A stretch of DNA of 64,000 nt from Rhodomicrobium lacus (GTDB lineage Bacteria; Pseudomonadota; Alphaproteobacteria; Rhizobiales; Rhodomicrobiaceae): contig NZ_RZNF01000002.1 of assembly GCF_003992725.1 (NCBI RefSeq), positions 248,001 to 312,000 on the forward strand, read 5' to 3'. The notes beneath the pieces were generated by a model. That model did no database searches. It was given only the letters and a program-made list of their open reading frames with translations, and had not been told where the DNA came from. Of this stretch, positions 12,638 through 48,604 are shown one piece after another (the stretch's first letter is position 1; each line of letters opens with the position of its first letter). A program made the translations under genes and the position numbers.

Positions 12638-12799
12638 GGGTCCGATTCCGACATTTGCATCGTTTGCAGCACGCTTGCGAGCAAATGGCGGATCGAAAGG
12701 ACCACTAGCAACATCATGATTCTAGTGGAGTTTTTGAATTTGACGTTTGAGCGAGAGCGCGCCGCCACCGGGACTCAAATGTCAAATTCGCTCCGCTAG
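12634..12799. repeat. Double-hairpin repeat, copy 1 (166 bp)
   Basis: Begins and ends with CTAG and contains two long imperfect hairpins in series. The first is built on CCGATTCCGACATTTGC and its complement, the second on GAATTTGACGTTTGAG and its complement. The two hairpins meet at GGACCACTAG...CTAGTGG. It is nearly identical to 21177-21344. The first CTAG contains the stop codon of the DPBB gene. Confidence 0.85.
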
Positions 12800-20589: not shown

Positions 20590-21180
20590 ATGAGCGACAA
20601 ATACGCAGCAAAGCACGTCGTCCGCGCCCCCGAAGCGCAACCGCATCTCGATCTGGACAAGGGGCAGGAGACACAACCCTGGGGCACGCTGACGGACCTT
20701 CCCATCGCGCTCGGGGAGAATGTGCGCGCGCAGAGCATCGAGACCTTGAATCAGGTGCTGGCCGACACGATCACGCTGCGCGACATGTACAAGAAGCATC
20801 ATTGGCAGGTGAGCGGCCCCACCTTCTACCAGCTCCATCTGCTTTTCGATAAGCACTATGGCGAGCAGAACGAGCTTGTCGACACCATCGCAGAGCGCAT
20901 CAGCGGGCTTGGGGGCGTGCAGGTGGCGATGGCGCCCGACGTGGCCGAAATGACGATGATCCGCCGTCCGCCCAAGGGGCGCGAGAACCCCGCGAAACAG
21001 ATATCGCGTTTGCTGGAAGCGCACCGGCACATTCTTGCGGAAGCTCGCGAGGGGGCGAAAATTGCCGCCGAATCGGGTGACGACGGCACGAACGACCTGC
21101 TCGTCAGCGACCTGATACGCCTGCATGAACAGCAGGTGTGGTTCCTGTCCGAGCATCTCGTGGCGGCACGCCTCGACTAG
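20590..21180 (+). CDS. dps: Dps family DNA-binding ferritin-like protein
   Basis: 196 aa. The four-helix Dps core carries the inter-subunit ferroxidase signature KKHHWQVSGPTFYQLHLLFDKHYGEQNELVDTIAERI (helices A/B) from about residue 70. Dps oxidises ferrous iron with peroxide, stores it and protects DNA. A long N-terminal tail (about 45 residues, His/Lys-containing) could bind DNA. The start at ATG 20590 was chosen on similarity. The TAG stop is part of the repeat that follows immediately. Confidence 0.93.
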   Translation: MSDKYAAKHVVRAPEAQPHLDLDKGQETQPWGTLTDLPIALGENVRAQSIETLNQVLADTITLRDMYKKHHWQVSGPTFYQLHLLFDKHYGEQNELVDTIAERISGLGGVQVAMAPDVAEMTMIRRPPKGRENPAKQISRLLEAHRHILAEAREGAKIAAESGDDGTNDLLVSDLIRLHEQQVWFLSEHLVAARLD

Positions 21181-21344
21181 TGGTCCGATTCCGACATTTG
21201 CATCCGTTTGCAGCATGCTTGCGAGCAAATGTCGGAATCGAAAAGACCACTAGCAACATCATGATTCTAGTGGAGCTTTTGAATTTGACATTTGAGCGAG
21301 AGCGCGCAGCCACCGGGACTCAAATGTCAAATTCGCTCCACTAG
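21177..21344. repeat. Double-hairpin repeat, copy 2 (168 bp)
   Basis: Same family as 12634-12799. It is CTAG-bounded with two hairpins. Arms of the first: TGGTCCGATTCCGACATTTGC against GCAAATGTCGGAATCG...GACCA. Arms of the second: CTAGTGGAG...GAATTTGACATTTGAG against CTCAAATGTCAAATTCG...CTCCACTAG. The opening CTAG contains the Dps stop codon. Better preserved than copy 1. Confidence 0.88.
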
Positions 21345-33371: not shown

Positions 33372-33510
33372 GTGCGGGCAACCGAAAGCTTCGTATAGGA
33401 GCCCCGAGAGTGTGACGCATTGCTTCCTGGTGAGTGGCTGCGGGCCGGACACGCTTACGGAACTGGATGAGAGAAGAGCCAACTCGCTGCATCGGACGGT
33501 TCACAAATAG
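33372..33510 (-). pseudogene. Integrase remnant (element 0, 5' part)
   Basis: Two pieces of the intact integrase at 46785-48431 are recognisable. VNRPMQRVGSSLIQFRKRV matches its residues 4-22. After a deletion and a frame change, GPQPLTRKQCVTLSGLLYEAF matches residues 92-112. The start codon has become ACG. Its upstream region runs into the first attachment-site copy exactly as in the intact element. Confidence 0.85.
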
Positions 33511-33544
33511 CGTCGTGTGTCACAGTGGGGCGACCAGAACCTTC

Positions 33545-33613
33545 ACGATGCCAATTCTTTGAGTATTTTTAGTGACTTGAAGTCACGCTGGTGCCCAGAA
33601 AGGATTTGCTGGG
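33545..33613. repeat. Attachment-site copy A
   Basis: ACGATGCCAATTCTTTGAGT, a T-run, then GACTTGAAGTCACGC and TGGTGCCCAGAA, the last being the 3' end of the tRNA-Leu gene. It matches copy B at 34773 and copy C at 48476. It is the most diverged of the three: only about 12 bases of tRNA end remain identical. Confidence 0.8.
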
Positions 33614-33730: not shown

Positions 33731-34087
33731 TTATCCAAACCCCTTCAGAGCTTTCAACGCTGCCGTTTTGAGGGAGGGTAGATCCTCCTTTACGATCGCC
33801 CAGATCTGGACACCGTCTATGGCGTCATATTCGTGACGCAGGCGGTTGCCGAGGCCCTGAATTCCTGTCCATGGCAAGCCGGGGATGATGTTTTCATCGC
33901 CGCGCTTGCGGATCCTATCAAGGGCTTCGATGAGCCGTTGCAGACAGCGCTCGACGGCATCTCTCGTTTTTGCGTCGGCTAGGAAGGCGCTCTCTTCGAG
34001 ACCTGCGACATAGGCCTCAATGACGTCGATGTTCTCGACGACCTGAGCGAGGTTGCGTGCGGTGTTAGAATGCGACGACGCGGTCAC
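33731..34087 (-). CDS. hepT: HepT-like (DUF86) toxin, copy 1
   Basis: 118 aa, helical HEPN-superfamily protein. The conserved end reads GIQGLGNRLRHEYDAIDGVQIWAIVKEDLPSL. HepT toxins carry R-x4-H-x-Y; here His85 and Tyr87 are present but the Arg position (80) is Gly, the GNxLRHxY variant seen in part of DUF86. Its partner MntA AMPylates HepT in the characterised system. The GTG start at 34087 mirrors copy 2 and overlaps the mntA end by 23 bases. Confidence 0.85.
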   Translation of the reverse strand: MTASSHSNTARNLAQVVENIDVIEAYVAGLEESAFLADAKTRDAVERCLQRLIEALDRIRKRGDENIIPGLPWTGIQGLGNRLRHEYDAIDGVQIWAIVKEDLPSLKTAALKALKGFG

Positions 34088-34373
34088 GGTCGATCTCGTT
34101 CTGAAGAGAGGGTTTCGCCGTAGGTTCGGGCACGAGATCGACATCGCGCCCCAAAGTCTCCGCAAGCCGCCCCTGCAAGCGCTCCAGAAGTCCGAAATAG
34201 GCAAGGCCGCGTGGCGTTTGCCCGGGGTCGAATGTCACAGCAAGGTCGATGTCGGACACGTCACTCTCATCGCCCCGCGCCACCGATCCGAACACAGACA
34301 GGCTCCTAACGCCGAACTGGCGCAGTTCGGCCTCCTGATCGCGCAGCCTCTTAAGGACAAGACCTCTCATCAT
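34065..34373 (-). CDS. mntA: MntA-like nucleotidyltransferase antitoxin, copy 1
   Basis: 102 aa. A minimal nucleotidyltransferase with the G-S-x10-D-x-D motif intact: SVFGSVARGDESDVSDIDLAV, Gly29, Ser30, Asp41, Asp43. MntA neutralises HepT by adding AMP to its Tyr. The start is at the double ATG 34373. There is no Shine-Dalgarno; a TATATT box lies a few bases upstream, so the mRNA may be leaderless. First gene of the pair. Confidence 0.85.
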   Translation of the reverse strand: MMRGLVLKRLRDQEAELRQFGVRSLSVFGSVARGDESDVSDIDLAVTFDPGQTPRGLAYFGLLERLQGRLAETLGRDVDLVPEPTAKPSLQNEIDRDRVVAF

Positions 34374-34498
34374 GCGCGCAATATAGCGCACGGAGGATTT
34401 GTAGAAAAGGAGCACGACGAGGGCATTGACTGAGAATGAGTAGTTCTCGCCTACCTGTGAGGTCGCGGCGACCTAAATGCCCGATGCTTGCACAAGGT

Positions 34499-34772: not shown

Positions 34773-34840
34773 ACGATGCCAATTTCTTGAGTGTTTTTAA
34801 GGACTTGAAGTCACGATGGTGCCCAGAAGAGGACTTGCTG
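34773..34840. repeat. Attachment-site copy B
   Basis: ACGATGCCAATTTCTTGAGT, GTTTTTAAGGACTTGAAGTCA, then TGGTGCCCAGAAGAGGACT, the last 19 bases of tRNA-Leu. Very close to copy C. It is followed by the left end of element 2. Confidence 0.85.
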
Positions 34841-34962: not shown

Positions 34963-35316
34963 TCAAAGTCCCTCCAGAGTTTTCAGCGCTGACGTTTTGA
35001 GGGAGGGTAAATCCTCCTTTACGATCGCCCAGATTTGCGCGCCGTCTATGGCGTCGTATTCATGCCGAAGGCGGTTGCCGAGGCCCTGAATGCCCGCCCA
35101 TGGCAAGCCGGGAATAACGCCTTCATCGCCGCGCTTGCGGATACGATCGAGGGCCTCGATGAGCCTTTGAAGACAGCGCTCGACGGCATCTCGCGTCCTT
35201 GCATCGGTCAGGAAACTGCCCTCATCGAGACCTGCGACATAGGTCTCGATGGCGTCGATGTTCTCGACGACCTGAGCGAGGTTTCGTGCGGTCTTAGAAC
35301 GCGACGACGCGGTCAC
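34963..35316 (-). CDS. hepT: HepT-like (DUF86) toxin, copy 2
   Basis: 117 aa, about 85-90% identical by eye to copy 1. It has the same GLGNRLRHEYDAIDG C-terminal motif with Gly in place of the usual Arg. It has a GTG start overlapping mntA by 23 bases. It lies directly inside the left end of element 2. Confidence 0.85.
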   Translation of the reverse strand: MTASSRSKTARNLAQVVENIDAIETYVAGLDEGSFLTDARTRDAVERCLQRLIEALDRIRKRGDEGVIPGLPWAGIQGLGNRLRHEYDAIDGAQIWAIVKEDLPSLKTSALKTLEGL

Positions 35317-35602
35317 GGTCTATCTCGTTCTGGAGAGATGATTTGGCCGTAGGTTCAGGCACGAGATCGACATCGCGCCCCAATGTCTCCGCAAGCCGCC
35401 CCTGCAAGCGCTCCAGAAGCCCGAAATAGGCAAGGCCGCGTGGCGTTTGCGAGGGGTCGAAGATCACAGCAAGGTCGATATCGGACTCGTCGCTCTCATC
35501 GCCGCGTGCCACCGATCCAAACACAGACAGGCTCTTCACGCCGAACTCGCGCAGCTCGGCCTCCTGATCGCGCAGTCTTTGAAGGACAAGGCCTTTCTCC
35601 AT
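35294..35602 (-). CDS. mntA: MntA-like nucleotidyltransferase antitoxin, copy 2
   Basis: 102 aa with SVFGSVARGDESDESDIDLAV carrying the intact Gly-Ser and Asp-x-Asp catalytic residues. Nearly identical to copy 1 except at the N-terminus (MEKGLVLQRLR). A TATATT box again lies just upstream (GCGCTATATTGC) with no Shine-Dalgarno. Confidence 0.85.
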   Translation of the reverse strand: MEKGLVLQRLRDQEAELREFGVKSLSVFGSVARGDESDESDIDLAVIFDPSQTPRGLAYFGLLERLQGRLAETLGRDVDLVPEPTAKSSLQNEIDRDRVVAF

Positions 35603-36001
35603 GGACAGCAATATAGCGCACCACAGGTTTACAGGAAAGGTCCGCAGCAGGCTGGCAGCCCATGTGCCCTGTCAGCGCCAAGCTTGGAGAAGGGACCGGA
35701 TGTTTTGGCGCACCCGTCGAAACCGGGGTTGGACTTTCGACCGGCGCAGAAATCCCCCCCGTGGGGGGCCTCGAGGCGATGCTTCATGCCTGACGACCAC
35801 AGCGTTGCCCAGAGAACTAAGGCTCACCCTCGAGGTCAGCATGGCCAGCTCTTGCCGTCTCCAGAAGAATGCTCAAGTATAAGCTTCCGGCCGACCCACA
35901 GCCCCAACGCCCGCGCTTTCCCTGTCGTGCCCTCCCCATGGAGCGCGGCCGGAGGATCGTGCGGACTGCGGTGGAGTCGAAGCGATACGAAGGAGGCGCA
36001 A
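35603..36001. other. Intergenic region of element 2
   Basis: 399 bases. Contains the stretch 35697-35755 shared with element 1, and the promoter and strong ribosome binding site (AAGGAGG, about 35990) of the next small gene. No other feature recognised. Confidence 0.5.
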
Positions 36002-36249: not shown

Positions 36250-36336
36250 TGAGACAGTTTTTAAGTCTCATTTGAGTCGATGTTTGATTTTCGAGACACC
36301 TTTATGCTAAGGTCTAGACTCAATCGAGACATTCCG
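36250..36336. promoter_or_regulatory. Probable res site/operator of the resolvase
   Basis: Clustered inverted repeats directly ahead of the resolvase: TGAGAC-N9-GTCTCA (36250-36270), TTGAGTC (36272) against GACTCAA (36317), CGAGAC (36292) and a second CGAGAC near 36325. Several dimeric sites in about 90 bases is the usual make-up of a res locus that also represses the gene. Confidence 0.6.
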
Positions 36337-36345
36337 GAGGACATT

Positions 36346-36900
36346 ATGGGCGCACTTTATGGGTATGCACGCGTCTCGAGCATCGACCAGGACCTGAGCA
36401 TTCAAGAGACGGCCCTGAAGGCGGCCGGATGCACGGTCGTTCGCGCCGAGAAGGCGTCAGGCAAAAGCCTGAACGGCCGCTCTGAACTGTCGACCATCAT
36501 GGATTTCCTGCGCCCCGGCGACACTCTCGTCGTGACACGCATCGACCGCCTTGCCCGCAGTCTAAGAGATCTTCAAAACCTCGTTCACGACCTGACGGTC
36601 AGAGGAGCGCACCTCAAGGCCACCGAACAACCAATCGATACCTCGACGGCGGCCGGCAAGGCATTTCTCGATATGCTGGGCGTGTTTGCCGAGTTCGAGA
36701 CGAACCTGCGCCGTGAGCGGCAAATGGAAGGGATAACAGCCGCGAGGGAACGGGGCGTCTACAAGGGCCGAAAGCCAGACATCGATGCAGACAAGGTGCG
36801 GGCGTTGAAGTCGGAGGGGTTGGGCGCGACCGAGATCGCGAAGCAACTCGGGATCGGTCGTGCAAGTGTCTACAGGGTAGTAAAGGATAACACGAATTGA
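36346..36900 (+). CDS. Serine recombinase (resolvase/invertase family)
   Basis: 184 aa, the usual resolvase length. N-terminal YGYARVSSIDQDLSIQ holds the catalytic serine (Ser11 or 12). TRIDRLARSLRDLQNLV near 66 gives the conserved Arg/Asp cluster, and EFETNLRRERQMEGITAARERG the long E helix. A C-terminal helix-turn-helix (GLGATEIAKQLGIGRASVYRVVK) binds DNA. It probably resolves dimers or cointegrates of the element. GGAGG six bases upstream of ATG. Confidence 0.93.
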   Translation: MGALYGYARVSSIDQDLSIQETALKAAGCTVVRAEKASGKSLNGRSELSTIMDFLRPGDTLVVTRIDRLARSLRDLQNLVHDLTVRGAHLKATEQPIDTSTAAGKAFLDMLGVFAEFETNLRRERQMEGITAARERGVYKGRKPDIDADKVRALKSEGLGATEIAKQLGIGRASVYRVVKDNTN

Positions 36901-37042
36901 AAAACGGCCCATTGAGGCTGCGGGCATTCGCTAACGGAGATTGAACGAAGATATAGAGGTAGGGGGCAGGGCCTTGCCCCTTCACGCCGGGAATCTTTCC
37001 GCGCCCGTCCTCTCACTCACGGTCACAACTAAAGAGGTATCA

Positions 37043-37711
37043 TTGCACCACACATGCATCGTGCGGGGCTGCGGCCGCCCTGCCGCGTCCCGGTTCTCGC
37101 GGTATTGCTATCAACATAAGGCGCGAGCACGCCGTCATGGCGCGGCGACACAGCCTGCCATCACCAAGACAAGGCTTAAGCCCTTTCTCGACAGGGTCCG
37201 GAAACGGATCGCCAGAAACCCCCATAGCGACGCCTGGGCGATCCTCGACGCGCGCTGGCTGGCCCTCAGGGACACTTCAGAGGCCATGACGGCGCGCTAT
37301 CGTGCGGGCACGCCAATCTCAAAGGTCGAGCGTCTGGCCGCCTGTGAGCTTCTGAAGCTTGCTGAAGACGTGCCTGCTCGTACCGTGGTGGAGACAACGC
37401 TTGCCATGGTCGTGCTTTGGGAGCTCGAACCTCATGCCTTCGTCTCCGATGAGGCGTTCTGGGTCCAGCTAGCCAGGCGCGTCAGGGCGCTCACAGACAT
37501 GAACTACGGGGAGCGCTACGTGCACACGACGGGGCGCGTGAAGCGGACCTATCGTGACCTGTCGCTGCGCGCTTCGATTTTGATGGGGCGCTGGCTCGCC
37601 GAGACGCTCGGCATAGGCGGGCTGCACATCGCGAGACTCGAGAAGGAGGAGGCCGACCGTCAGTCTTCCGAACGGCAGAAGCTGCACGTGGCACTTCAGG
37701 AGCTTGTTTGA
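37043..37711 (+). CDS. Hypothetical protein with an N-terminal Cys/His cluster
   Basis: About 222 aa, family not recognised. The start reads HHTCIVRGCGRPA then RYCYQHKARARRHG, a C-x4-C...C-x2-H arrangement suited to zinc binding. The rest is helical and Arg-rich. The start is uncertain: TTG 37043 has GAGG five bases upstream, while TTG 36941 abuts its GGAGA. It ends two bases before the polymerase-like gene and is probably its partner. An internal piece of it survives in the element 1 relic. Confidence 0.7.
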   Translation: MHHTCIVRGCGRPAASRFSRYCYQHKARARRHGAATQPAITKTRLKPFLDRVRKRIARNPHSDAWAILDARWLALRDTSEAMTARYRAGTPISKVERLAACELLKLAEDVPARTVVETTLAMVVLWELEPHAFVSDEAFWVQLARRVRALTDMNYGERYVHTTGRVKRTYRDLSLRASILMGRWLAETLGIGGLHIARLEKEEADRQSSERQKLHVALQELV

Positions 37712-37712
37712 G

Positions 37713-39107
37713 ATGATGGAAGAGGTGCAATCGAACGCTACGGCCCATTCTCCACGTCGAAAACCCAAACCCCCGCAGCCTCAGCGCCACCGCTGGTTTG
37801 ACGCCTGGCTGAGGGCCGACGGCGACGGGCTGAAGGCTCTTGTGGATCGAACACTCAGCTTCATCGACTTCCATGAAAATCACACGGGTATGAGGGTGAG
37901 GTCGAGGCGGCCGCTCGATCTTGCCCACCATAAGGCCCGTGTCGAAGCCATCGTGTGCAATCTCGCTTATGCGGTTCTGCTCCCGCCGCCTTCGGGCCGT
38001 ATCGCGGTCAAGCTCGGCAATGGACGAAAGGGACGAACACGATACGACAGCCCGGTGATGGGAAAGACGCTCTCACCGCTGATCAACGCCTTCGATGCGA
38101 TCGATATGCTGTATGTCCATGCGCCCACCGTACGGCGCGGGGAGGCCTCCTCCATCGAGCCGACGGCCTGGTTCGCGCGGAAGGTTGAGGAGTTCGGTGT
38201 AACCCTCGGGGACTTCGGGCGCGACGTTGCGGAGGAACTCGTCCACCTCACGCGGAACACCCGGACGAGTTCTGAAAGCAAGATCAGGGAGCCGATTGAG
38301 TACGAGGACGACGCGCTTACGACGCTGCATCGGGAAAATCTCCTGAGTCTGAACCTCTTCCTCAAAAAGGCGGACATCGACTTCCTCGACGATGGAGGTG
38401 AGCCACGGGTCGATCCCTTCGACAGGACGTTGCGTCGACGTTTTGTCATTCTGAAGGACCAGGAGCCTCGCTTCGACCAGGGAGGGCGCCTATATGGCGG
38501 CTTCTGGCAAAACCTCAAGTCCGCCCGGAGGCGACAAGTCCGCATTGATGGCGAGCCGGTGGCGGTGCTCGACTACAGATCCATGTTCACACGCCTTGCC
38601 TATTGCGAGCTCGGCGCGACACCGCCTGACGGCGATCTATATGCCATCCCCGGCGCGGAGGGATACCGCAGCGGCATCAAACTCGCCATGAATTGCTTTC
38701 TCTTCGACGGTGGTCCCCGTCTGTCGTGGCCCGCAGAACTCGGAGTTGGTGTCGGCAGCGATCAGGAGGCCATCGACGATCCCGAGGGGAGGGCGGCTGG
38801 CTTTGAGGCAAGGCTTCCGGCAGGCTGGACGGTCGGGCGAACGAAGCAGGCTATACTGACGGTCCACCCCGTTCTGAAGGCTGCATGGGGGAAAAAGCTC
38901 GGCTACAGGCTCATGTTCATCGAAAGCGAGATCATGATTGCCATCCTCCAGGCGCTCGTTCAAGAGAATATCCCGGCTCTTGGGCTTCACGACGGTCTAT
39001 TAGTGGCGATGTCTCGGCAAGACCGGGCTCAGGAAGTAATGCGTGAACAGGCTCGAAGGATCGCAGGGGCTTCTTTGCCTGTGTCGGTAAAGACCGTGAG
39101 TGTATGA
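37713..39107 (+). CDS. Putative family-A DNA polymerase-like palm/fingers protein
   Basis: 464 aa. Three blocks match family-A polymerase motifs in order and spacing. Motif A: AVLDYRSMFTRLAY with Asp287, Tyr288 and Arg294 (the DYSQIELR pattern, Arg at +7). Motif B: YRSGIKLAMNCFLFDG with Arg319 and Lys323, Arg at -4 and an aromatic at +8. Motif C: ALGLHDGLLVA with His426-Asp427. GGRLYGGFWQNLKSARRRQ ahead of motif A resembles the template/primer-binding region. No 3'-5' exonuclease or 5' nuclease motifs are seen and about 250 N-terminal residues are unassigned. Could prime or replicate the element; activity is inferred. Confidence 0.65.
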   Translation: MMEEVQSNATAHSPRRKPKPPQPQRHRWFDAWLRADGDGLKALVDRTLSFIDFHENHTGMRVRSRRPLDLAHHKARVEAIVCNLAYAVLLPPPSGRIAVKLGNGRKGRTRYDSPVMGKTLSPLINAFDAIDMLYVHAPTVRRGEASSIEPTAWFARKVEEFGVTLGDFGRDVAEELVHLTRNTRTSSESKIREPIEYEDDALTTLHRENLLSLNLFLKKADIDFLDDGGEPRVDPFDRTLRRRFVILKDQEPRFDQGGRLYGGFWQNLKSARRRQVRIDGEPVAVLDYRSMFTRLAYCELGATPPDGDLYAIPGAEGYRSGIKLAMNCFLFDGGPRLSWPAELGVGVGSDQEAIDDPEGRAAGFEARLPAGWTVGRTKQAILTVHPVLKAAWGKKLGYRLMFIESEIMIAILQALVQENIPALGLHDGLLVAMSRQDRAQEVMREQARRIAGASLPVSVKTVSV

Positions 39108-39770: not shown

Positions 39771-42590
39771 ATGAACGCTGTCGAGATTGAACAGGCTATT
39801 TCCGCGCTCGCCGACCAGCCGTTCGACCCGGCAGAGTTTCCGTTCGCCTTCCTGCAAGCCTTCGGTAACAAGGAAACTACGCTCAAGCGGCTCCGCAAGG
39901 GGGAGACGAACAAGTCCGACCTAGGGGGCGTGCTCCAGACAAACAACATTCACATCGCTGTGGCTGCGCCGGGCGAAGTTACGAAGACGCTCGCCGCGCT
40001 CAAGGCGAGCCCTGCTACGGCGAAGGCCAAGGCGAAGTTCGTGCTCGCAACAGACGGCGATACCTTCGAAGCGGAGGATTTGGTTTCAGGCGAAACCGTC
40101 GCTTGCGCCTATGCCGACTTCCCGAACCATTTCGGCTTCTTCCTCGAACTGGCGGGCATCACCACCGTCAAGCAAATCCGCGACAACGCCTTCGACATCC
40201 GCGCCACCAACCGCCTGAACAACCTTTACGTCGAGCTTCTGAAAATCAATCCCGACTGGGGAAGCGCCGATCGCCGCCACGACATGAACCACTTCATGGC
40301 GCGGCTCATCTTCTGCTTCTTCGCCGAAGACACCGACATCTTCAACGGCTCGGGCCTCTTCACCGCCACCATCGAGCAGATGTGCGCGCGCGACGGCTCC
40401 GACACGCATTTCGTGATCGGTGAAGTCTTCCGCGCGATGAACACAAAGATGCAGGATCGCGGCGCGGCTAATCTCCGCCCGTGGGCCGATGTCTTCCCTT
40501 ATGTGAATGGCGGGTTGTTTTCCGGAAGCACCGATGTGCCGCGCTTCAGCAAGATCGCGCGCTCCTACCTGATCCATATCGGCCATCTCGACTGGACGAA
40601 AATCAACCCGGACATCTTCGGCTCGATGATCCAGGCCGTCGCGGAGGACGAGGAACGCGGCGCGCTCGGCATGCACTACACGAGCGTTCCGAACATCCTG
40701 AAGGTGCTCAACCCGCTCTTCCTCGACGATCTGCGCGAGAAGCTTGCCGAGGCCGGAACGAACAAACGCAAGCTCCAGAATTTGCGAAACCGCCTCGCGC
40801 GTATCCGCGTGTTCGATCCGGCTTGCGGCTCCGGCAACTTCCTCGTCATCGCCTACAAGCAGTTGCGCGAGATCGAACGCCGTATCGTGGTGGCGCTTCA
40901 GGGCGGCGCGGCGACGGACGAGGCGTTACTCGACACGGTGAATTTTCCCGGCGAGAAGACGGTGATCCCTCTCACCAACTTTCGCGGCATCGAGATCAGA
41001 GACTTCCCCGCCGAGATCGCGCGGCTCGCGCTCGTTATCGCCGAATATCAGTGCGACGTGCTCTATCGCGGTCAGAAGGAAGCGTTGCAGGATTTCCTGC
41101 CGCTCGACACTGAGAACTGGATTGTCCGTGAAAATGCTCTCCGGCTCGACTGGCTAAGCATTTGTCCGCCTACGGGAACAGGCGTGAAATTTCACGCGGA
41201 CGATCTTTTGCACACGCCGCTCGATCAGTCGCAGATCGACTTCGAGAACGAGGGCGGGGAGACGTACATTTGTGGAAACCCGCCTTATCGAGGGAGCCAA
41301 TGGCAGACGAATGAGCAGAAGTCCGATCTGAAAGCCATTTTCGAGGGACGCACAACCAACTGGAAGTCTCTCGATTATGTGGCTGGCTGGTTCATGAAGG
41401 CGGCGGACTACGGAACTAAAACCAACGCTGTCGCATCTTTCGTGTCCACCAATTCCATCTGCCAGGGCCGACAGGTCGAAACTCTATGGTCTCTTATTTT
41501 CGAGACTGGGCATGAGATTGCCTTTGCCCATACCTCGTTCAAATGGGCCAATCTCGCCAGCCACAGCGCCGGTGTTACCGTTGTCATCGTTGGCATTTCC
41601 AATCACACTGGCCGAACGCGGCTCCTGTTCTCCGATACCGGCGATAACGGGACGACCGTCAAAGATGTTGAGAACATCAACGCCTATTTGGTGCCAGGTC
41701 CGAATGTCATCGTTGGTCCGCTTTCACGGCCGATCAACGGCCTAAGTGACATGAGTTTCGGCAACATGCCTAACGATGGCGGGCATTTGTTGCTCGATGC
41801 TGACGAAGCGGCAACCGCTATCAAGAATCATGCCGTCCCCCCAAAATACGTTCGCCCCTTTATCGGCTCACAGGAGTTCGTCCGAGGGATCGAGCGACGA
41901 TGCATTTGGGTGGCTGACAACGAATATGAGGCCGCCAGTGGAAATGCTTGGCTGAAAGAGCGGTTTGAAGGTGTTTGTGCGCAACGAAGCGGATCGGGTC
42001 GCGCAACGACCAATGCACTTGCTGTAACACCCTACCGTTTTGGCGAAGTCAGACAGAAGGGCGACGAGGCCGTTATCGCCGTCGCTGCAATCAGTTCAGA
42101 GAACCGCGATTATCTGCCATGCGGGTTGCTTCCTCCCGGAACCATAATCTCAAACAAATGCTACGCCCTCTACGACGCGCCCCTCTGGAACATGGCGTTG
42201 ATCGCCTCACGCCTGCATTGGGTTTGGATTGGCACGGTTTGTGTGCGCTTGGAGATGCGTTTCTCTTACTCAAACACCCTCGGCTGGAACACCTTCCCGG
42301 TCCCAACACTCACTGAAAAGAACAAAGCCGACCTTACCCGCTGCGCCGAAGACATCCTTCTGGCGCGCGAGGCGCATTTCCCCGCCACCATCGCCGATCT
42401 TTACGATCCCGAAAACATGCCCGCGAACCTGCGCGAGGCGCATGAGCGCAACGACGAGGTGCTTGAGCGCATCTATATCGGCCGCCGCTTCCGCAACGAC
42501 ACCGAGCGGCTGGAAAAGCTGTTCGAGATGTATACAAAAATGACCTCCTCACTTGGTACGGCAAAGAAAAGAAAGGTGGGTGCACCATGA
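39771..42590 (+). CDS. MmeI/YeeA-like N6-adenine DNA methyltransferase
   Basis: 939 aa. SAM motif I FDPACGSGNFLVIAYKQLR at 348-366 and catalytic motif IV GNPPYRGSQWQ at 502-512 define a gamma-class adenine methylase. A helical N-terminal region (1-340) and a C-terminal target-recognition region (about 610-900) give the architecture of the MmeI group. I do not see a D-x-ExK nuclease motif in the N-terminal region, so cleavage is more likely supplied in trans. ATG 39771 is preferred over TTG 39756. First gene of a four-gene run; it overlaps the next by ATGA. Confidence 0.9.
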   Translation: MNAVEIEQAISALADQPFDPAEFPFAFLQAFGNKETTLKRLRKGETNKSDLGGVLQTNNIHIAVAAPGEVTKTLAALKASPATAKAKAKFVLATDGDTFEAEDLVSGETVACAYADFPNHFGFFLELAGITTVKQIRDNAFDIRATNRLNNLYVELLKINPDWGSADRRHDMNHFMARLIFCFFAEDTDIFNGSGLFTATIEQMCARDGSDTHFVIGEVFRAMNTKMQDRGAANLRPWADVFPYVNGGLFSGSTDVPRFSKIARSYLIHIGHLDWTKINPDIFGSMIQAVAEDEERGALGMHYTSVPNILKVLNPLFLDDLREKLAEAGTNKRKLQNLRNRLARIRVFDPACGSGNFLVIAYKQLREIERRIVVALQGGAATDEALLDTVNFPGEKTVIPLTNFRGIEIRDFPAEIARLALVIAEYQCDVLYRGQKEALQDFLPLDTENWIVRENALRLDWLSICPPTGTGVKFHADDLLHTPLDQSQIDFENEGGETYICGNPPYRGSQWQTNEQKSDLKAIFEGRTTNWKSLDYVAGWFMKAADYGTKTNAVASFVSTNSICQGRQVETLWSLIFETGHEIAFAHTSFKWANLASHSAGVTVVIVGISNHTGRTRLLFSDTGDNGTTVKDVENINAYLVPGPNVIVGPLSRPINGLSDMSFGNMPNDGGHLLLDADEAATAIKNHAVPPKYVRPFIGSQEFVRGIERRCIWVADNEYEAASGNAWLKERFEGVCAQRSGSGRATTNALAVTPYRFGEVRQKGDEAVIAVAAISSENRDYLPCGLLPPGTIISNKCYALYDAPLWNMALIASRLHWVWIGTVCVRLEMRFSYSNTLGWNTFPVPTLTEKNKADLTRCAEDILLAREAHFPATIADLYDPENMPANLREAHERNDEVLERIYIGRRFRNDTERLEKLFEMYTKMTSSLGTAKKRKVGAP

Positions 42591-43420
42591 GTAGCCTCAC
42601 CGACATCGAAAAACGCTATTTCGAAAAGTTGCTCGGAATGCAGAGCGGCTACGTTCTGGATTACACTGATGCGACCTTTAGTGAGTTCTTCAGTCGCCAC
42701 AAGATCAACATTCACGGCCAGAAGTATCAGACCTACGGAACCTCCAAGGCCAAGAAAATTCGGGCGTTCTGGGAGCAAGAGCCGGATGCAATCGTCGGAA
42801 AAGTGCTAGACGAGCTGTTGGACGCTTATGAGGCTGATTGCACTCTGAATAACCGTGACGCGGAGGTGTCTGTTCTCGAAAAGGCACGCGGGATTATCGC
42901 TCGGCTGTGCGGTGTACCTGCGGCCTCAAAGCCAACGCAGACTGTCGACGATTTTCTGCATAGCGAATTTTCGATTCCCAACATCCAAAAGTTGCCGATT
43001 GAGGCAATGGTTGTGCCCATCATCGAAAGCCGCTTAAAAGAAGCGCGCGCGGCGATGGGAGCGGGCGCATACCTCTCGACCATCTTCCTTTGCGGTAGCG
43101 TATTAGAAGCCGTCCTTCTCGGGGCGGCACAGAAGGAGCCTGCGCGCTTCAACCGGGCTTCGGCCAGTCCAAAGGCCGTGGACGGCAGCGTGAAGCGTTT
43201 TCCTGAATGGAGCCTTGCGCAGTTCATAGATGTCGCTTGCGAGGCTGGGTTGCTGAAACCGGACGTGAAGAAATTCAGTCACGGACTTCGAGATTTTCGC
43301 AATTACATCCATCCATACGAACAAATGGTATCCGGCTTCACGCCTGATGAGCATACGGCGAAAGTATGCTTTCAGGTGCTTAAGGCGGCGCTTGCCAGCG
43401 TTGCGGGGGAAAGAAAATGA
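42587..43420 (+). CDS. AbiJ-NTD4/HEPN-type abortive infection protein
   Basis: 277 aa. Residues 9-80 (YFEKLLGMQSGYVLDYTDAT, FSEFFSRHKINIHGQKY, GTSKAKKIRAFWEQEPD) match the AbiJ N-terminal domain 4. The C-terminal half is helical and ends in HGLRDFRNYIHPYEQ, where Arg235-x6-His242 is a HEPN-type R-x4-6-H ribonuclease motif with Asp after the Arg. Such HEPN domains cleave RNA. The gene is ATGA-coupled on both sides, to the methylase and the helicase, so it is a built-in part of the operon rather than a bystander. Confidence 0.75.
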   Translation: MSSLTDIEKRYFEKLLGMQSGYVLDYTDATFSEFFSRHKINIHGQKYQTYGTSKAKKIRAFWEQEPDAIVGKVLDELLDAYEADCTLNNRDAEVSVLEKARGIIARLCGVPAASKPTQTVDDFLHSEFSIPNIQKLPIEAMVVPIIESRLKEARAAMGAGAYLSTIFLCGSVLEAVLLGAAQKEPARFNRASASPKAVDGSVKRFPEWSLAQFIDVACEAGLLKPDVKKFSHGLRDFRNYIHPYEQMVSGFTPDEHTAKVCFQVLKAALASVAGERK

Positions 43421-45477
43421 ATTCGGGTGTCCAATCAGTCCCCTCAGTCTCTGTCCGCTACGCTCGCAACGGTAGTTCGACCAAGGCCAATGAGCTTGGC
43501 ATGCGACCGATGCAGGAGCGTGCCTACGAGAAGCGCGGCGAACAGTATCTCCTGATTAAGTCGCCGCCTGCATCAGGCAAGAGCCGCGCGCTGATGTTCA
43601 TCGCACTCGACAAGCTCGCCAATCAGGGGCTTAAACAGGCGATCATCGTGGTGCCGGAACGGTCGATCGGCGCGAGCTTCAACGACGAGCCTTTATCCAA
43701 GTTCGGCTTCTGGTCGGACTGGACGGTTGCTCCGAAATGCAACCTTTGCAACGCGCCCGGCGGGGATAATGGCGGCAAGGTGAATTCGGTTGGGGCCTTC
43801 CTTGAGGGCGATGACAAGGTGCTGGTGTGCACCCACGCAACATTCCGCTTCGCCGTCGACAAGTTTGGCGTGGAGGCGTTTGACGATCGGCTGATCGCCG
43901 TTGACGAGTTTCACCACGTCTCCGCCAACCCCGACAACAAGCTCGGCTTGCACCTTGGCGACTTCATTGCCCGCGATCGCGTGCATATCGTGGCGATGAC
44001 CGGCTCCTATTTCCGGGGTGACGCGGAAGCCGTGCTGTCGCCACAGGACGAGGAGAAGTTCGACACCGTCACCTACACCTATTATGAGCAGCTCAACGGC
44101 TACGAGTATCTGAAGCAGCTCGACATCGGCTATTTCTTCTATTCCGGCTCCTACACCGACGACATCCTGAAGGTGCTCGATCCAGCCGAGAAGACGATTG
44201 TGCATATCCCGAACGTCAACTCGCGCGAGAGCACGAAGGACAAGATCAGGGAAGTCGAGCACATCATCGAGGAGTTGGGAGAATGGCAGGGAACAGACGC
44301 TGCGACTGGCTTCCAACTCGTCAAGACTAAGGAGGGCCGCATCCTGCGCATAGCGGACCTGGTCGACGATGATCCGGCCAAGCGTGACAGGGTTTCCGCT
44401 GCGCTTAAAGACCCAGCGCACAAGAACAACCGCGATCATGTCGACATCATCATCGCTCTCGGCATGGCCAAGGAAGGCTTCGACTGGATTTGGTGCGAGC
44501 ATGCGTTGACGGTCGGCTATCGGTCGAGCCTCACCGAAATCGTGCAAATCATCGGCCGCGCGACACGCGATGCACCGGGAAAGTATCGCGCCCGCTTTTC
44601 CAACCTGATCGCTGCGGTCGATGCGTCCGATGAAGCCGTAACCGAGGCCGTCAACGACACACTAAAAGCCATCGCGGCGAGCCTTCTCATGGAGCAAGTG
44701 CTAGCGCCTCGCTTTGAGTTCAGGCCGAAGAACCCGCAGAGTGGCCCGACGCCCGGCTTTGACTACGGCGAAGGCGGTTACGACGCGAACAAGTGCAATG
44801 TTGGCTTCAATGAGGAAAGCGGGCAATTCGAAATCGAAATCAAGGGGCTCGTTGAGCCGAAGAGCGAAGAAGCGCAACGCATCTGCCAGCAGGACTTAAA
44901 CGAGGTCGTCGCGGCTTTCGTGCAGGATAAGCGATCGCTCGAACGCGGGCTTTTCGACAAGGAACTGATGCCCGAGGAACTGACCGTCGCGCGAATGGGC
45001 AAGATCATCAAGGACAAGTATCCCGGTCTCGACGCCGAAGATCAGGAGGCTGTCCGCCAGCATGCGATAGCCGCACTGAACCTCACACAAAAGGCCAAGG
45101 AAGCCACCACTCGCGGAAACGGCGAAGGCGAGAGCGCTCCCAACACCGCCTTCGTGGACAGTGTGCGGAGATATGCCATGGATGTTCGAGAGCTTGATAT
45201 TGATCTGATCGATCGCATCAACCCATTCAGCGGAGCCTATGCAATCCTGGCGAAGACGATGAGTGAGGAGAGCCTGAAGCAGGTCGAAGCCGTTATCGCA
45301 GGCAAACGTGTGAGCCTTACTGTCGAGGAAGCTCGGATGCTCGCCAAGCGGGCCTTGCAGTTCAAACAGGAGCGCGGTCGTCTGCCTTCGATCACGTCGC
45401 CAGATGCTTGGGAAAAACGGATGGCCGAAGGCGTCGCCTTTCTTCAGCGCATGAAAGCCGAGGCGGCGCGTGGCTAA
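43417..45477 (+). CDS. SF2 DEAD/DEAH-box helicase of the defence operon
   Basis: 686 aa. Walker A SPPASGKS at 49-56, Walker B AVDEFHH at 161-167, motif III MTGS at 194-197 and motif VI QIIGRATRD at 377-385 give a complete superfamily 2 helicase/translocase. A Cys pair (CNLCN, 108-112) sits in an insertion. A 250-residue C-terminal extension is helical and unassigned. No nuclease motif is seen in it. The start overlaps the HEPN gene by ATGA and the end overlaps the nuclease gene by 8 bases. Confidence 0.9.
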   Translation: MNSGVQSVPSVSVRYARNGSSTKANELGMRPMQERAYEKRGEQYLLIKSPPASGKSRALMFIALDKLANQGLKQAIIVVPERSIGASFNDEPLSKFGFWSDWTVAPKCNLCNAPGGDNGGKVNSVGAFLEGDDKVLVCTHATFRFAVDKFGVEAFDDRLIAVDEFHHVSANPDNKLGLHLGDFIARDRVHIVAMTGSYFRGDAEAVLSPQDEEKFDTVTYTYYEQLNGYEYLKQLDIGYFFYSGSYTDDILKVLDPAEKTIVHIPNVNSRESTKDKIREVEHIIEELGEWQGTDAATGFQLVKTKEGRILRIADLVDDDPAKRDRVSAALKDPAHKNNRDHVDIIIALGMAKEGFDWIWCEHALTVGYRSSLTEIVQIIGRATRDAPGKYRARFSNLIAAVDASDEAVTEAVNDTLKAIAASLLMEQVLAPRFEFRPKNPQSGPTPGFDYGEGGYDANKCNVGFNEESGQFEIEIKGLVEPKSEEAQRICQQDLNEVVAAFVQDKRSLERGLFDKELMPEELTVARMGKIIKDKYPGLDAEDQEAVRQHAIAALNLTQKAKEATTRGNGEGESAPNTAFVDSVRRYAMDVRELDIDLIDRINPFSGAYAILAKTMSEESLKQVEAVIAGKRVSLTVEEARMLAKRALQFKQERGRLPSITSPDAWEKRMAEGVAFLQRMKAEAARG

Positions 45478-46660
45478 AGATTTTACCGACGAAGACGACG
45501 CGATTCTAACCGCGCTTGGCGCCGAGGCTGAAGGGAGCAAAGCGTCGAGCCGGACACCTCGCGAAGAGCGCATCATCGCTGGCTTCGAGGAAATCCAGCG
45601 CTTCGTTGAACAGCATGGCCGCGCGCCACAGCACGGCGAGGATCGTGATATTTTTGAGCGCCTTTATGCTGTCCGCCTCGATCAAATCCGCGCGAAGGCC
45701 GATTGCCGCGTCGTCATAGAGCCCCTCGACCATCAAGGTCTTCTAGCAGGTGAGTCGCCTACTCCCGTCAGCGTCCCCGACGAACTCGACGATGACGAAC
45801 TACTGGCTCAGCTTGGAGTGCAGAGCGAGACGGGCGGCCTCACGGAACTCCGCCACGTTCGCTCGGCTGAAGAAAAGCGTGCGGCTGAAGAAATCGCGAA
45901 TCGAGAACAATGCGAGGATTTCAACCGCTTCAAACCGCTATTCGAGGAGGTGCAGCGCCAAATCGAAAATGGTGAACGGCAGCTCCGCCCTTTCGAGCTG
46001 AAAGCGGAAATTCGCCCTGGGACATGGTTTATCGTCGGGGGGCTGAAAGCATATGTGGCCGAATCGGGCGAAGTTTTTACAAATGCCCAAGGGCGCACAG
46101 ATGCTCGATTGCGCGTTATTTTCGACAATGGCACACAGAGCAACATGCTCATGCGATCGCTTCAGCGCGCGCTGAACAAGGACGAGGCTGGCCGCCGGAT
46201 TACCGATCCTGTCGCCGGGCCGCTGTTTTCCAGCATGCGGTCGGAAGGTGACGAAGCGAGCGGCACAATTTACGTTCTGCGGAGCAAGTCCGATCATCCC
46301 ATGGTTAGCGCAAATCGTGAGCTCGTGCACAAGATCGGTGTTACCAACATGGCCGTCGAGCAGCGTATAGCAGGAGCGCGCCTTCAACCGACCTTTCTCA
46401 TGGCTGATGTGGAAGTCGTCGCCACCTATGAGCTGTTCAACATCAACCGGGCGAGGCTTGAGCACCTGATTCATCGCATATTCGGCCCAGCCCGTCTCGA
46501 AATCGAGATCAAGGATCGCTTCGGACAGCCGGTGATCCCCCGAGAATGGTTTCTCGTTCCGCTCTTCGTTATCGACGAGGCAGTCGAAAAGATAAGAGAT
46601 GGATCGATTTTCAATTATATTTATGATCCCAAAGCAGCATCCCTGGTAGAGGGTATGTAA
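45470..46660 (+). CDS. GIY-YIG (T5orf172/MUG113-like) nuclease of the defence operon
   Basis: 396 aa. Residues 1-260 are charged and helical, without an assigned domain. The C-terminal domain has a variant GIY-YIG pair (GTIYVL at 265-270 and HKIGVT at 287-292), a following Arg299 (EQRI) and Glu331 in RLEHLIHRIFG, the expected metal ligand. GTG start at 45470 overlapping the helicase. The likely DNA-cutting subunit of the system. Confidence 0.85.
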   Translation: MAKDFTDEDDAILTALGAEAEGSKASSRTPREERIIAGFEEIQRFVEQHGRAPQHGEDRDIFERLYAVRLDQIRAKADCRVVIEPLDHQGLLAGESPTPVSVPDELDDDELLAQLGVQSETGGLTELRHVRSAEEKRAAEEIANREQCEDFNRFKPLFEEVQRQIENGERQLRPFELKAEIRPGTWFIVGGLKAYVAESGEVFTNAQGRTDARLRVIFDNGTQSNMLMRSLQRALNKDEAGRRITDPVAGPLFSSMRSEGDEASGTIYVLRSKSDHPMVSANRELVHKIGVTNMAVEQRIAGARLQPTFLMADVEVVATYELFNINRARLEHLIHRIFGPARLEIEIKDRFGQPVIPREWFLVPLFVIDEAVEKIRDGSIFNYIYDPKAASLVEGM

Positions 46661-46784: not shown

Positions 46785-48431
46785 TTAGCTGGCGGGCTGT
46801 CGTGGCACCTTGATCTTCAATATTGCCTCCCGCAGCGTGGCCAGATCGAAATGCCGGTAGGTGTCTGCTTCTCCGCGCTTTCCGACATGGCCCTGGATGG
46901 CGTCTGCAACGCTCTCGAGGATGCCGGCCTTCACGCAAGCTGACTTGAACCAGTGTCTAAAAGCGTGGTTAGGCGCCTTTCGAGGATCGTTGAAGCCTTT
47001 GCCCCTGATCCACTCACGGACACGATTGGCAGTCCCCTTCGAGGCATGAGCTGCCGTTTCGTTTTTCCTCGGACGGGCTCTTCCGAGCTTTCCGCCGTAG
47101 AAAAGCGGCCCGCTGCCACGCGATTTTACAAAGTCCAAAAAGCCGCGTTCGATGAGCGCTGGATGGATCGGAACATCGCGTTCAGACGCTGCTGTCTTCA
47201 CGGTCCCGCCATCTTCGGTAAGCGTGAGAGTCAATACGGCAACGCCGTCGATCTGCTTGATGTGCTCGCCCCAAAGTTGGGCGATTTCGCCGACACGGGC
47301 GCCGGTCAGAGCGAGAATCCAAGGAACCCAGTGCAACGCTGAAGCGGTCTCCTTGTCCGCGAAAGCCAGGATTTGCGAGACTTCCTCATCGCTGTAGGGC
47401 TTCATTGCAGTCCCCGCCTTCTTCTTCATGCGCACCTTTGTGCCATCGACGGGGTCGAAGTCGATCAAGTCCTCCCTCTTGGCGAGGCGATAAAGAGCCT
47501 GAATGTGTGCAAGATAAGTCCCGTTGATCGTCTTCGCAGATAGCCCTTTCTCGAGAAGGGTGTCGCGCCAAGCTCTCACATCGTCCTTGGTTACGCGCGC
47601 CGGTTCAGCATGGCCCAAATGGCTCGAGAATGCTTTCACGACGGATCGAAAGGCCTGTTTCGTACTTGGAGACTTGTCGCCCTCACGCTCCCACACTGAC
47701 AGTAATTTTTCGAATGTAAGGGACGATGGACGCGAAGAGGAGGACAGTGGCGCGGCTCTTTGTGGTTGAGCTCCTTCCCATGCCGGAAATCTGGCAGCTA
47801 CGGGGTCCGGCGAATAGTCGCCTTCTGCGTTCCTTTGAAGCTTTCTCGCCGCCTCGTTGATTGCGTGCCCGGCCTCCTCAAGGAGAAACCTCCGGCTCAA
47901 GACATCGGTAACGATCCCTTCACGTCGCAGTATGGCATCCACGAGGGCGCCGAAACGCTCATCAAGCAACCGCAAACGCCCCTCACCGGGGAAGGTATCG
48001 ATCGTCAGTAGTTTTCCCTTCAGCGCGTATTCGTTGGCCTCCTGCACGCGTTTCCAGATTTCGGGGTCGCCGGGGTCGTCTTCGAGATTGTCCGCGAAAG
48101 CTTTGTATAGGAGCCCCGAGAGCGCGATGCGTTGTTTCTTGGTGAGTGGCTGCGCGCCCCGCAGGAATGCGTTGAATGCGCGGCCCAACTGTTCCGTGGC
48201 GGCTGCATTCCTGATCTTCGCGAGAGCTGGATCGCGTGTGCGCAGGGAGAATCGGATGTCGGGGCCAATCGTGACATTCACGAGGATAGGATCGCCGTCT
48301 GTGTCTTCGGGTGGAAGCGATATCGTGACAAGTTTTCCCTTGGCGACCTTCAGAACGTCGTCGGGAACGCGCTTGCGGAACTGGATGAGAGAAGAGCCGA
48401 CTCGCTGCATCGGACGGTTCACAAATAGCAT
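46785..48431 (-). CDS. int: Tyrosine recombinase (integrase) of the tRNA-Leu element
   Basis: 548 aa. The N-terminal region begins VNRPMQRVGSSLIQFRKRVP as in DUF6538-type integrases. A SAM-like core-binding domain lies at about 237-325. The catalytic domain has Arg379 (TGARVGEIAQLW), His489-x-x-Arg492 (HAFRHWF), His515 (QGHVGKRG) and nucleophile Tyr525 (DTYRHF), all intact. It starts 88 bases from the tRNA 3' end and is transcribed away from it, the standard arrangement for tRNA-integrated islands. Confidence 0.95.
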   Translation of the reverse strand: MLFVNRPMQRVGSSLIQFRKRVPDDVLKVAKGKLVTISLPPEDTDGDPILVNVTIGPDIRFSLRTRDPALAKIRNAAATEQLGRAFNAFLRGAQPLTKKQRIALSGLLYKAFADNLEDDPGDPEIWKRVQEANEYALKGKLLTIDTFPGEGRLRLLDERFGALVDAILRREGIVTDVLSRRFLLEEAGHAINEAARKLQRNAEGDYSPDPVAARFPAWEGAQPQRAAPLSSSSRPSSLTFEKLLSVWEREGDKSPSTKQAFRSVVKAFSSHLGHAEPARVTKDDVRAWRDTLLEKGLSAKTINGTYLAHIQALYRLAKREDLIDFDPVDGTKVRMKKKAGTAMKPYSDEEVSQILAFADKETASALHWVPWILALTGARVGEIAQLWGEHIKQIDGVAVLTLTLTEDGGTVKTAASERDVPIHPALIERGFLDFVKSRGSGPLFYGGKLGRARPRKNETAAHASKGTANRVREWIRGKGFNDPRKAPNHAFRHWFKSACVKAGILESVADAIQGHVGKRGEADTYRHFDLATLREAILKIKVPRQPAS

Positions 48432-48475
48432 CGTGTGTCACACCCGTGTGTCACAGTGGGGCGACCAGAACCTTA

Positions 48476-48519
48476 ACGATGCCAATTCCTTGAGTGTTTT
48501 TAAGGACTTGAAGTCATGA

Positions 48520-48540
<21 letters not shown>
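48476..48540. repeat. Attachment-site copy C (tRNA-proximal)
   Basis: ACGATGCCAATTCCTTGAGT, GTTTTTAAGGACTTGAAGTCA, then TGGTGCCCAGAAGAGGACT, overlapping the 3' end of the intact tRNA-Leu gene. Copies A and B repeat this unit. Confidence 0.88.

Positions 48541-48604
<64 letters not shown>

What the first reader, a model, noticed from the sequence alone, without database searches (positions are those of the whole stretch)
39771..46660. Four-gene methylase / AbiJ-HEPN / helicase / GIY-YIG operon, candidate defence system
Seen: four genes in tight overlap (ATGA, ATGA, 8 bases) inside an integrated element. They encode an MmeI-like adenine methylase without a visible nuclease motif, a HEPN protein with an AbiJ-type N-terminal domain, a complete SF2 helicase, and a variant GIY-YIG nuclease. 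Known: methylases, SF2 helicases and nucleases combine in anti-phage systems such as DISARM and type III or ISP restriction. Inference: the methylase marks self DNA, helicase plus GIY-YIG nuclease attack unmarked DNA, and the HEPN RNase gives an abortive back-up. I know no named system with exactly these four parts.
Basis: partly seen in the sequence, partly recalled or inferred. Interest (0 to 1): 0.82.

Follow-up and report, generated by a model that had tools for sequence, protein, structure and literature searches.

The report
Restriction module with swappable HEPN cargo
Three of the four genes are a known but little-understood bacterial DNA-restriction module (DnmA-YeeB-YeeC), and the fourth, a likely RNA-cutting suicide gene, sits in a slot of that module where relatives carry many unrelated defence or toxin genes.

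Summary
The four overlapping genes are real and lie on a 13.7-kb island at a tRNA-Leu gene. Three form a published cluster, DnmA-YeeB-YeeC: an MmeI-like methylase without a conserved nuclease motif, an SF2 helicase and a T5orf172/GIY-YIG nuclease. That order recurs in 36 of 36 helicase loci from two genome samples. The HEPN gene is not core. It occupies a slot between methylase and helicase: of 132 loci, 64 carry cargo there and 68 none; HEPN is in 10. Cargo falls into 40 sequence clusters (RhuM, Schlafen-ATPase, YhcG, GmrSD-like, BrnT and others). The first cargo gene overlaps the methylase by exactly 4 nt in 45 of 64. The helicase/nuclease junction has an insert over 100 nt in 1 of 144. A 78% identical HEPN sits between hsdS and hsdR of a type I system with the same 4-nt overlap. 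The methylase's target-recognition domain averages 44% identity even where helicases are 90-95% identical, suggesting specificity exchange. Most likely reading: ATP-dependent restriction with a swappable back-up effector, as PrrC is to EcoprrI. Core and principle are published; the slot, its turnover and the effector shared with type I I did not find in print. Function is inferred; B. subtilis deletions showed no phage defence.

The parts
39771..42590 (+). MmeI-like adenine methylase (DnmA/YeeA type), 939 aa, without a conserved PD-ExK motif; target-recognition domain about residues 643-847
   Evidence: Pfam MmeI_N, MmeI_hel, MmeI_Mtase, MmeI_TRD, MmeI_C; MmeI 5hr4 at E 2.8e-136; PADLOC PDLC03598 type IIG, 939 bits
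42587..43420 (+). HEPN protein, 277 aa: variable cargo in the slot, not part of the core
   Evidence: RDFRNYIH, conservation, weak structural hits, 10 of 132 slots, type I loci L159 and L180
43417..45477 (+). SF2 helicase (YeeB type), 686 aa
   Evidence: Pfam DEAD and ResIII just above their cut-offs; motifs; 69.8% identical to an Acetobacter protein annotated 'restriction/modification system component YeeB'
45470..46660 (+). T5orf172/MUG113 GIY-YIG nuclease (YeeC type), 396 aa
   Evidence: Pfam; catalytic positions conserved
46785..48431 (-). tyrosine integrase of the island
   Evidence: Phage_int_SAM_1 above cut-off; Phage_integrase below its cut-off
48520..48604 (-). tRNA-Leu (CAG), integration site
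48489..48538 (.). att-like repeat, tRNA end of the island
   Evidence: 50 bp, one mismatch to 34786-34835
34786..34835 (.). att-like repeat, far end of the island

Best explanation
The locus is a mobile restriction-modification-like module of the DnmA-YeeB-YeeC kind carrying an embedded, exchangeable HEPN effector. Shown here: a conserved three-gene core, a cargo slot at one junction only, turnover of cargo, a hypervariable target-recognition domain, and the same HEPN family inside type I restriction loci. Inferred: (1) the methylase marks one strand of an asymmetric site, as published for DnmA and MmeI; (2) on unmarked DNA the methylase, docking through its dead nuclease domain, recruits or activates the helicase, which translocates and brings in the GIY-YIG nuclease to cut; (3) the HEPN protein is held inactive by the intact complex and degrades RNA, stopping growth, when a phage blocks or overwhelms restriction, as PrrC does in the type I system EcoprrI.
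For: Core order 36 of 36 in the two samples; over all 145 helicase loci of at least 550 aa the nuclease is downstream in 144 (one locus ends at the contig edge) and the methylase upstream in 133 (12 end at a contig edge; one search listed L085 as lacking it, one search found it). Slot at methylase/helicase 64 of 132 against 1 of 144 at helicase/nuclease. First cargo start overlaps the methylase stop by 4 nt in 45 of 64. HEPN between hsdS and hsdR in L159 and L180, full HsdM, HsdS and HsdR domains, 4-nt overlap with hsdS in both. Target-recognition domain identity 0.41-0.44 for helicase identity 0.60-0.95. Identity of the methylase N-terminal domain tracks that of the helicase (r 0.63, 0 of 500 permutations) although it is encoded furthest from it. 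Literature, passages only: DnmA makes m6A at GACGAG; V. crassostreae homologues reported to protect against some phages (PMC9973331); PrrC and RM-linked HEPN model (PMC12707154, PMC3710099).
Against: In B. subtilis deletion of yeeB or yeeC changed neither killing nor plaquing by three phages, deletion of dnmA did not change transformation, and the motif is not depleted in phage genomes; the authors call the cluster a relic (PMC9973331, PMC7261158). No experiment exists for the window's proteins. The HEPN model has low confidence and no significant fold match. HEPN relatives also stand without either system (L160), so coupling is not required everywhere. The tracking of N-terminal domain and helicase could reflect shared descent alone; the C-terminal domain is so conserved that its low correlation says little.
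Confidence: 0.6

Rival explanations
1. The cargo genes are independent passengers. The slot is only a safe, expressed landing place (or the toxins act as addiction genes that keep the module), and HEPN has no functional contact with the restriction core.
For: Cargo is very diverse, including ordinary toxin-antitoxin genes (RelE/ParE pair in L005, PIN pair in L059, BrnT in L077 and L138); HEPN relatives stand alone in L160; 68 of 132 cores have no cargo.
Against: Position and 4-nt overlaps point to translational coupling; the same HEPN sits at the equivalent place, between modification/specificity and helicase genes, of type I systems.
Confidence: 0.22
2. A relic: the methylase is a working orphan enzyme for gene regulation, and helicase, nuclease and cargo are decaying or inactive.
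For: The conclusion drawn for B. subtilis (PMC9973331, PMC7261158).
Against: Helicase and nuclease are open and strongly conserved, catalytic positions included, across 102 loci; the target-recognition domain varies as expected for a specificity under turnover; V. crassostreae deletions are reported to raise sensitivity to some phages. The B. subtilis proteins are said to lack C-terminal stretches.
Confidence: 0.12
3. A dedicated four-part system in which HEPN is an obligatory component.
For: Tight four-gene overlap in the window and several relatives.
Against: HEPN in 10 of 132 slots only; on the helicase tree these 10 need 9 changes of state, about as many as shuffled labels (mean 9.7).
Confidence: 0.04

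Closest known systems
DnmA-YeeB-YeeC cluster (B. subtilis; homologues in V. crassostreae)
   Same: MmeI-like methylase without nuclease motif, SF2 helicase, T5orf172/GIY-YIG protein, same order, on mobile elements
   Different: An extra HEPN gene sits between methylase and helicase; the near clade to which the window belongs has cargo in 14 of 26 sampled loci against 1 of 10 in a far clade. Which clade holds B. subtilis YeeB was not tested.
PrrC in the type I system EcoprrI; DarTG2 and other genes embedded between hsdS and hsdR
   Same: An effector gene embedded between specificity/modification genes and the helicase gene of an ATP-dependent restriction system (passages of PMC12707154, PMC3710099, PMC12255303); our HEPN itself occurs there
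   Different: The window's host system is MmeI-like with a separate GIY-YIG nuclease, not HsdMSR; the HEPN has no ABC-ATPase domain
MmeI and type IIL/IIG enzymes
   Same: Domain order and fold of the methylase
   Different: No conserved nuclease motif; helicase and nuclease are separate genes
Embedded defence genes found by guilt-by-embedding (PDC and HEC candidates, Payne 2024 preprint, known to me here only through citing papers)
   Same: Principle of defence genes nested in other defence systems; cargo representatives match PADLOC PDC-S02, PDC-S05 and PDC-S67
   Different: The window HEPN matches no PADLOC model; I could not read the preprint, so whether it treats this host system is unknown

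Membership tests
DnmA-YeeB-YeeC | MmeI-like methylase without nuclease motif | tested here: met
DnmA-YeeB-YeeC | SF2 helicase and T5orf172/GIY-YIG gene downstream, same order | tested here: met
   36 of 36 sampled loci
DnmA-YeeB-YeeC | direct homology to the B. subtilis proteins | tested here: inconclusive
   MmeI_N model also rings in B. subtilis among 14 control genomes; an Acetobacter homologue is annotated YeeB; no direct alignment to YeeB or YeeC was made
DnmA-YeeB-YeeC | m6A at a non-palindromic site | not testable with these tools
   needs methylation mapping
Type IIL/IIG (MmeI) | PD-ExK nuclease fused in the N-terminal domain | tested here: not met
   no conserved D..[DE]xK in 102 homologues; the position of the MmeI motif itself is recalled, its N-terminus was not aligned
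Type I restriction | HsdM, HsdS and HsdR subunits | tested here: not met
   Pfam of the four proteins shows none of HsdM_N, Methylase_S, HSDR_N
DISARM | DrmA, DrmB, DrmC beside the methylase | tested here: not met
   PADLOC: methylase matches DrmMI at 91.7 bits at best, the other three proteins match no Drm model
BREX | PglZ and BrxC | tested here: not met
   absent from the four proteins and from eight further island proteins by Pfam; the rest of the window was not scanned
AbiJ | AbiJ N-terminal domain fused to HEPN | tested here: inconclusive
   no Pfam or NCBIfam match at E 0.1; partial similarity to annotated abortive infection proteins
HEPN RNase | Rx4-6H motif in a helical bundle | tested here: met
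   RDFRNYIH (Rx6H) in the window protein, R and H invariant in 9; all-helical model, low confidence

The most novel reading that the evidence does not exclude
DnmA-YeeB-YeeC is a live, modular class of ATP-dependent restriction with two exchangeable cassettes, the target-recognition domain and an effector slot, and its effectors plug equally into type I systems because they read a state common to all translocating restriction complexes; the B. subtilis 'relic' would then be an exception.
Probability: 0.3. Interest if true: 0.7.

Novelty: new variant of a known kind. Interest (0 to 1): 0.46.

Why it matters
The cluster's function is disputed: a relic in B. subtilis, protective in V. crassostreae as cited. 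A hypervariable recognition domain and a slot with fast-changing defence genes argue for continuing conflict with phages and make the question testable. The slot is also a discovery tool: a number of its occupants match no Pfam or PADLOC model, and genes found there are candidate anti-phage effectors. An effector shared between two structurally different restriction systems would let one ask what common signal releases it.

Tried and rejected
Four-part obligate system: rejected, HEPN in 10 of 132 slots. DISARM, BREX, type I, type IIG membership: rejected, see membership test. Phage-borne system: 3 of 50,697 phage records match the helicase, none over 80% of its length; plasmids 264 of 72,556, 152 of them over 80%.

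Cargo moving with one core gene: label changes were compared on trees of parts of the core for 102 loci (100 shuffles each). All fit only weakly; the best fit is the last 90 residues of the methylase (the script's label says 80): 23 changes against a shuffled mean of 34.1 for occupancy, 42 against 49.9 for type. Nucleotide comparison of 11 pairs of relatives with different slots: the helicase side is mostly well conserved up to the start, the methylase side was compared without gaps and is mostly out of register, so no clean insertion footprint was obtained.

Turnover is not random: occupied/empty needs 31 changes on the tree of 120 helicases, fewer than any of 200 shuffles (mean 40.3, minimum 33); first-cargo type 55 against a mean of 60.4, range 56-62. 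So there is some inheritance.

Helicase fold: model confidence low (65.6); Foldseek gives generic SF2 helicases, with HsdR, RadD, MrfA and HamB among the hits; not used as evidence. Hel-profile search of PDB sequences: no hit.

Rows dropped before counts: window duplicates L089 and L151; L008 (helicase fragment); L115 (duplicate of L105); L109, L111, L114, L116 (helicase under 550 aa); short genome-search loci replaced by longer stretches of the same places; loci fetched for HEPN only. Slots counted as empty include six with a gap over 150 nt but no + strand ORF of 75 aa by the script (L023, L032, L102, L106, L143, L185; an 83-aa ORF in L185 seen was displaced by a minus-strand ORF). Split methylase ORFs (L014, L017, L064, L146, L147, L198) were counted as methylase present and not mended. 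Some of the 40 cargo clusters may be spurious small ORFs, and L179 and L188 carry about 7 kb each. The 80 loci are the nearest of at least 553 relatives, hence a biased sample; the 36 loci are the fairer one. The two genome samples (385 and 398) overlap in part.
Full report
WHAT IS THERE. The four genes are as described: 39771-42590, 42587-43420, 43417-45477, 45470-46660, overlapping by 4, 4 and 8 nt. They lie on a 13.7-kb island between a 50-bp repeat at 34786-34835 and its copy (one mismatch) at 48489-48538 in the tRNA-Leu end, with an integrase beside the tRNA. The genome holds one copy of the helicase.

THE CORE IS KNOWN. The methylase has all five MmeI domains and matches MmeI (5hr4) at E 2.8e-136; PADLOC would file it as a type IIG enzyme (939 bits), yet no D..[DE]xK is conserved in the N-terminal 139 residues of 102 homologues. 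The helicase has the SF2 motifs and the last gene a T5orf172/MUG113 domain with conserved GIY-YIG positions. Passages of two papers describe the same trio as dnmA-yeeB-yeeC in B. subtilis, an MmeI homologue without endonuclease motif followed by helicase and T5orf172 genes, and report conservation of the neighbourhood. They also report no effect of deletions on three phages or on transformation and call it a relic, while citing protection in V. crassostreae. I saw passages only; the primary V. crassostreae and MmeI-family papers are not held.

CONSERVATION. In 385 genomes of the class 17 have the helicase (18 loci); in 398 of the phylum 22; the samples share some genomes, and the distinct loci are 36. 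Methylase upstream and nuclease downstream: 36 of 36. Over all 145 loci with a helicase of at least 550 aa, nuclease 144 (one locus ends at the contig edge), methylase 133 (12 end at the edge).

THE SLOT. Of 132 loci scored for it, 64 have a + strand ORF of at least 75 aa between methylase and helicase, 68 do not. In the 36 sampled loci: near clade (helicase above 1000 bits) 14 of 26, far clade 1 of 10 (Fisher p 0.024). Cargo ORFs form 40 clusters at blastp E 1e-5. Of 20 cargo proteins scanned with Pfam 13 have a match at E 0.01, 12 above the curated cut-off: RhuM, two Schlafen AlbA_2 with HATPase, YhcG/DUF1016, HEPN, YobI-ATPase, DUF2281, PIN, GmrSD_N, DUF559, BrnT, Gp49-like. One frequent unmatched cluster looks like a phospholipase-D nuclease by eye only. 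Of 26 representatives scanned against PADLOC, matches include PDC-S02, PDC-S05, PDC-S67 and Tmn; the window HEPN matches nothing. The slot is specific: at the helicase/nuclease junction 1 of 144 loci has more than 100 nt (161 nt in L138), Fisher p 3e-24, with the caveat that related loci are not independent. The first cargo gene overlaps the methylase by 4 nt in 45 of 64; where the slot is empty, methylase and helicase overlap by 4 nt in 45 of 68.

TURNOVER. On a FastTree tree of 120 near-clade helicases, occupied/empty needs at least 31 changes (200 shuffles: mean 40.3, minimum 33) and the first-cargo type 55 (mean 60.4); HEPN, in 10 loci, needs 9 (mean 9.7). So cargo is gained, lost and exchanged often, with some inheritance. 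Exchange of the core genes themselves adds to these numbers.

THE SAME HEPN IN TYPE I SYSTEMS. In the class sample 11 of 385 genomes have a relative of the HEPN (E 1e-5), but only the window's genome has it beside the helicase. In the phylum sample 5 of 398 do (E 1e-20); one further genome, G394, has it in the slot. L159 and L180 carry it between hsdS and hsdR (in L159 with an ImmA-like gene, Peptidase_M78, in between); Pfam confirms HsdM, HsdS and HsdR, and HEPN overlaps hsdS by 4 nt in both. The L159 protein is 78% identical to the window's and 82% to that of L033, a DnmA-type slot. L163 has a truncated copy beside an ImmA homologue; L181 and L182 have a more distant copy abutting an hsdS fragment (33 bits); L160 stands alone; L161 is degenerate and L162 ends at a contig edge. 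The HEPN tree is too poorly resolved to give direction.

SPECIFICITY TURNOVER. In 5151 pairs of 102 loci the target-recognition domain averages 0.41-0.44 identity in every bin of helicase identity from 0.60 to 0.95 (0.545 above 0.95), while the C-terminal domain is 0.83-0.92 and the N-terminal domain rises from 0.67 to 0.95. Identity of the N-terminal (ex-nuclease) domain correlates with that of helicase residues 1-430 at 0.63 and the recognition domain at 0.10 (Mantel: 0 and 31 of 500 permutations). This suggests that recognition domains are swapped while the dead nuclease domain stays with the helicase, perhaps as its dock; shared descent could also give it.

MECHANISM. I read it as restriction in which the methylase supplies recognition and self-marking, helicase and GIY-YIG nuclease the attack, and HEPN a back-up that is released when restriction fails. 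The 2013 HEPN survey proposed this for RM-linked HEPN genes in general and noted AbiJ genes in operons with RM systems (PMC3710099, passages); PrrC in EcoprrI is the precedent. None of it is tested for these proteins.

NOVELTY. The core, RM-linked HEPN effectors and embedding of defence genes are all published. I found no paper on a cargo slot in DnmA-YeeB-YeeC, on its turnover, or on effectors shared with type I systems in the ten searches made; PMC9973331 only remarks that an uncharacterized family could be another member in some bacteria, and the Payne 2024 preprint, the most likely place, was not readable here.

Noticed in passing
window 33731-34415 and 34963-35611, - strand: Two similar HepT-like/nucleotidyltransferase pairs (HepT-MntA type by recall) about 1.2 kb apart, one on each side of the island's far repeat.
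   Followed up: partly
window 33383-33600: A third att-like copy preceded by stretches 88-95% alike to parts of the integrase gene near 48095-48442: probably the remnant of an older island at the same tRNA.
   Followed up: partly
window 36280-36900, 36941-37711, 37704-39107: Serine resolvase followed by two overlapping ORFs of 256 and 467 aa without any Pfam match.
   Followed up: no
window 12634-12799 and 21177-21344: A repeat of about 165 nt, 94-96% alike, 8.5 kb apart; no Rfam match.
   Followed up: no
L001 3331-4005, L006 3352-4025, L007 994-1668, L008 1979-2653: On four plasmids an annotated 'plasmid stabilization protein' and VapC toxin lie directly before the methylase gene.
   Followed up: no
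L179 4696-9722 and L188 4508-8873: Two genomes share several genes inside an insert of about 7 kb between methylase and helicase; in L179 one ORF carries a YMDD-like motif by eye.
   Followed up: no
L045 8826-10004 and L148 8293-9276: Cargo protein with a weak second T5orf172 domain (17.8 bits, under the cut-off) in the slot of a module that already has a T5orf172 nuclease.
   Followed up: no
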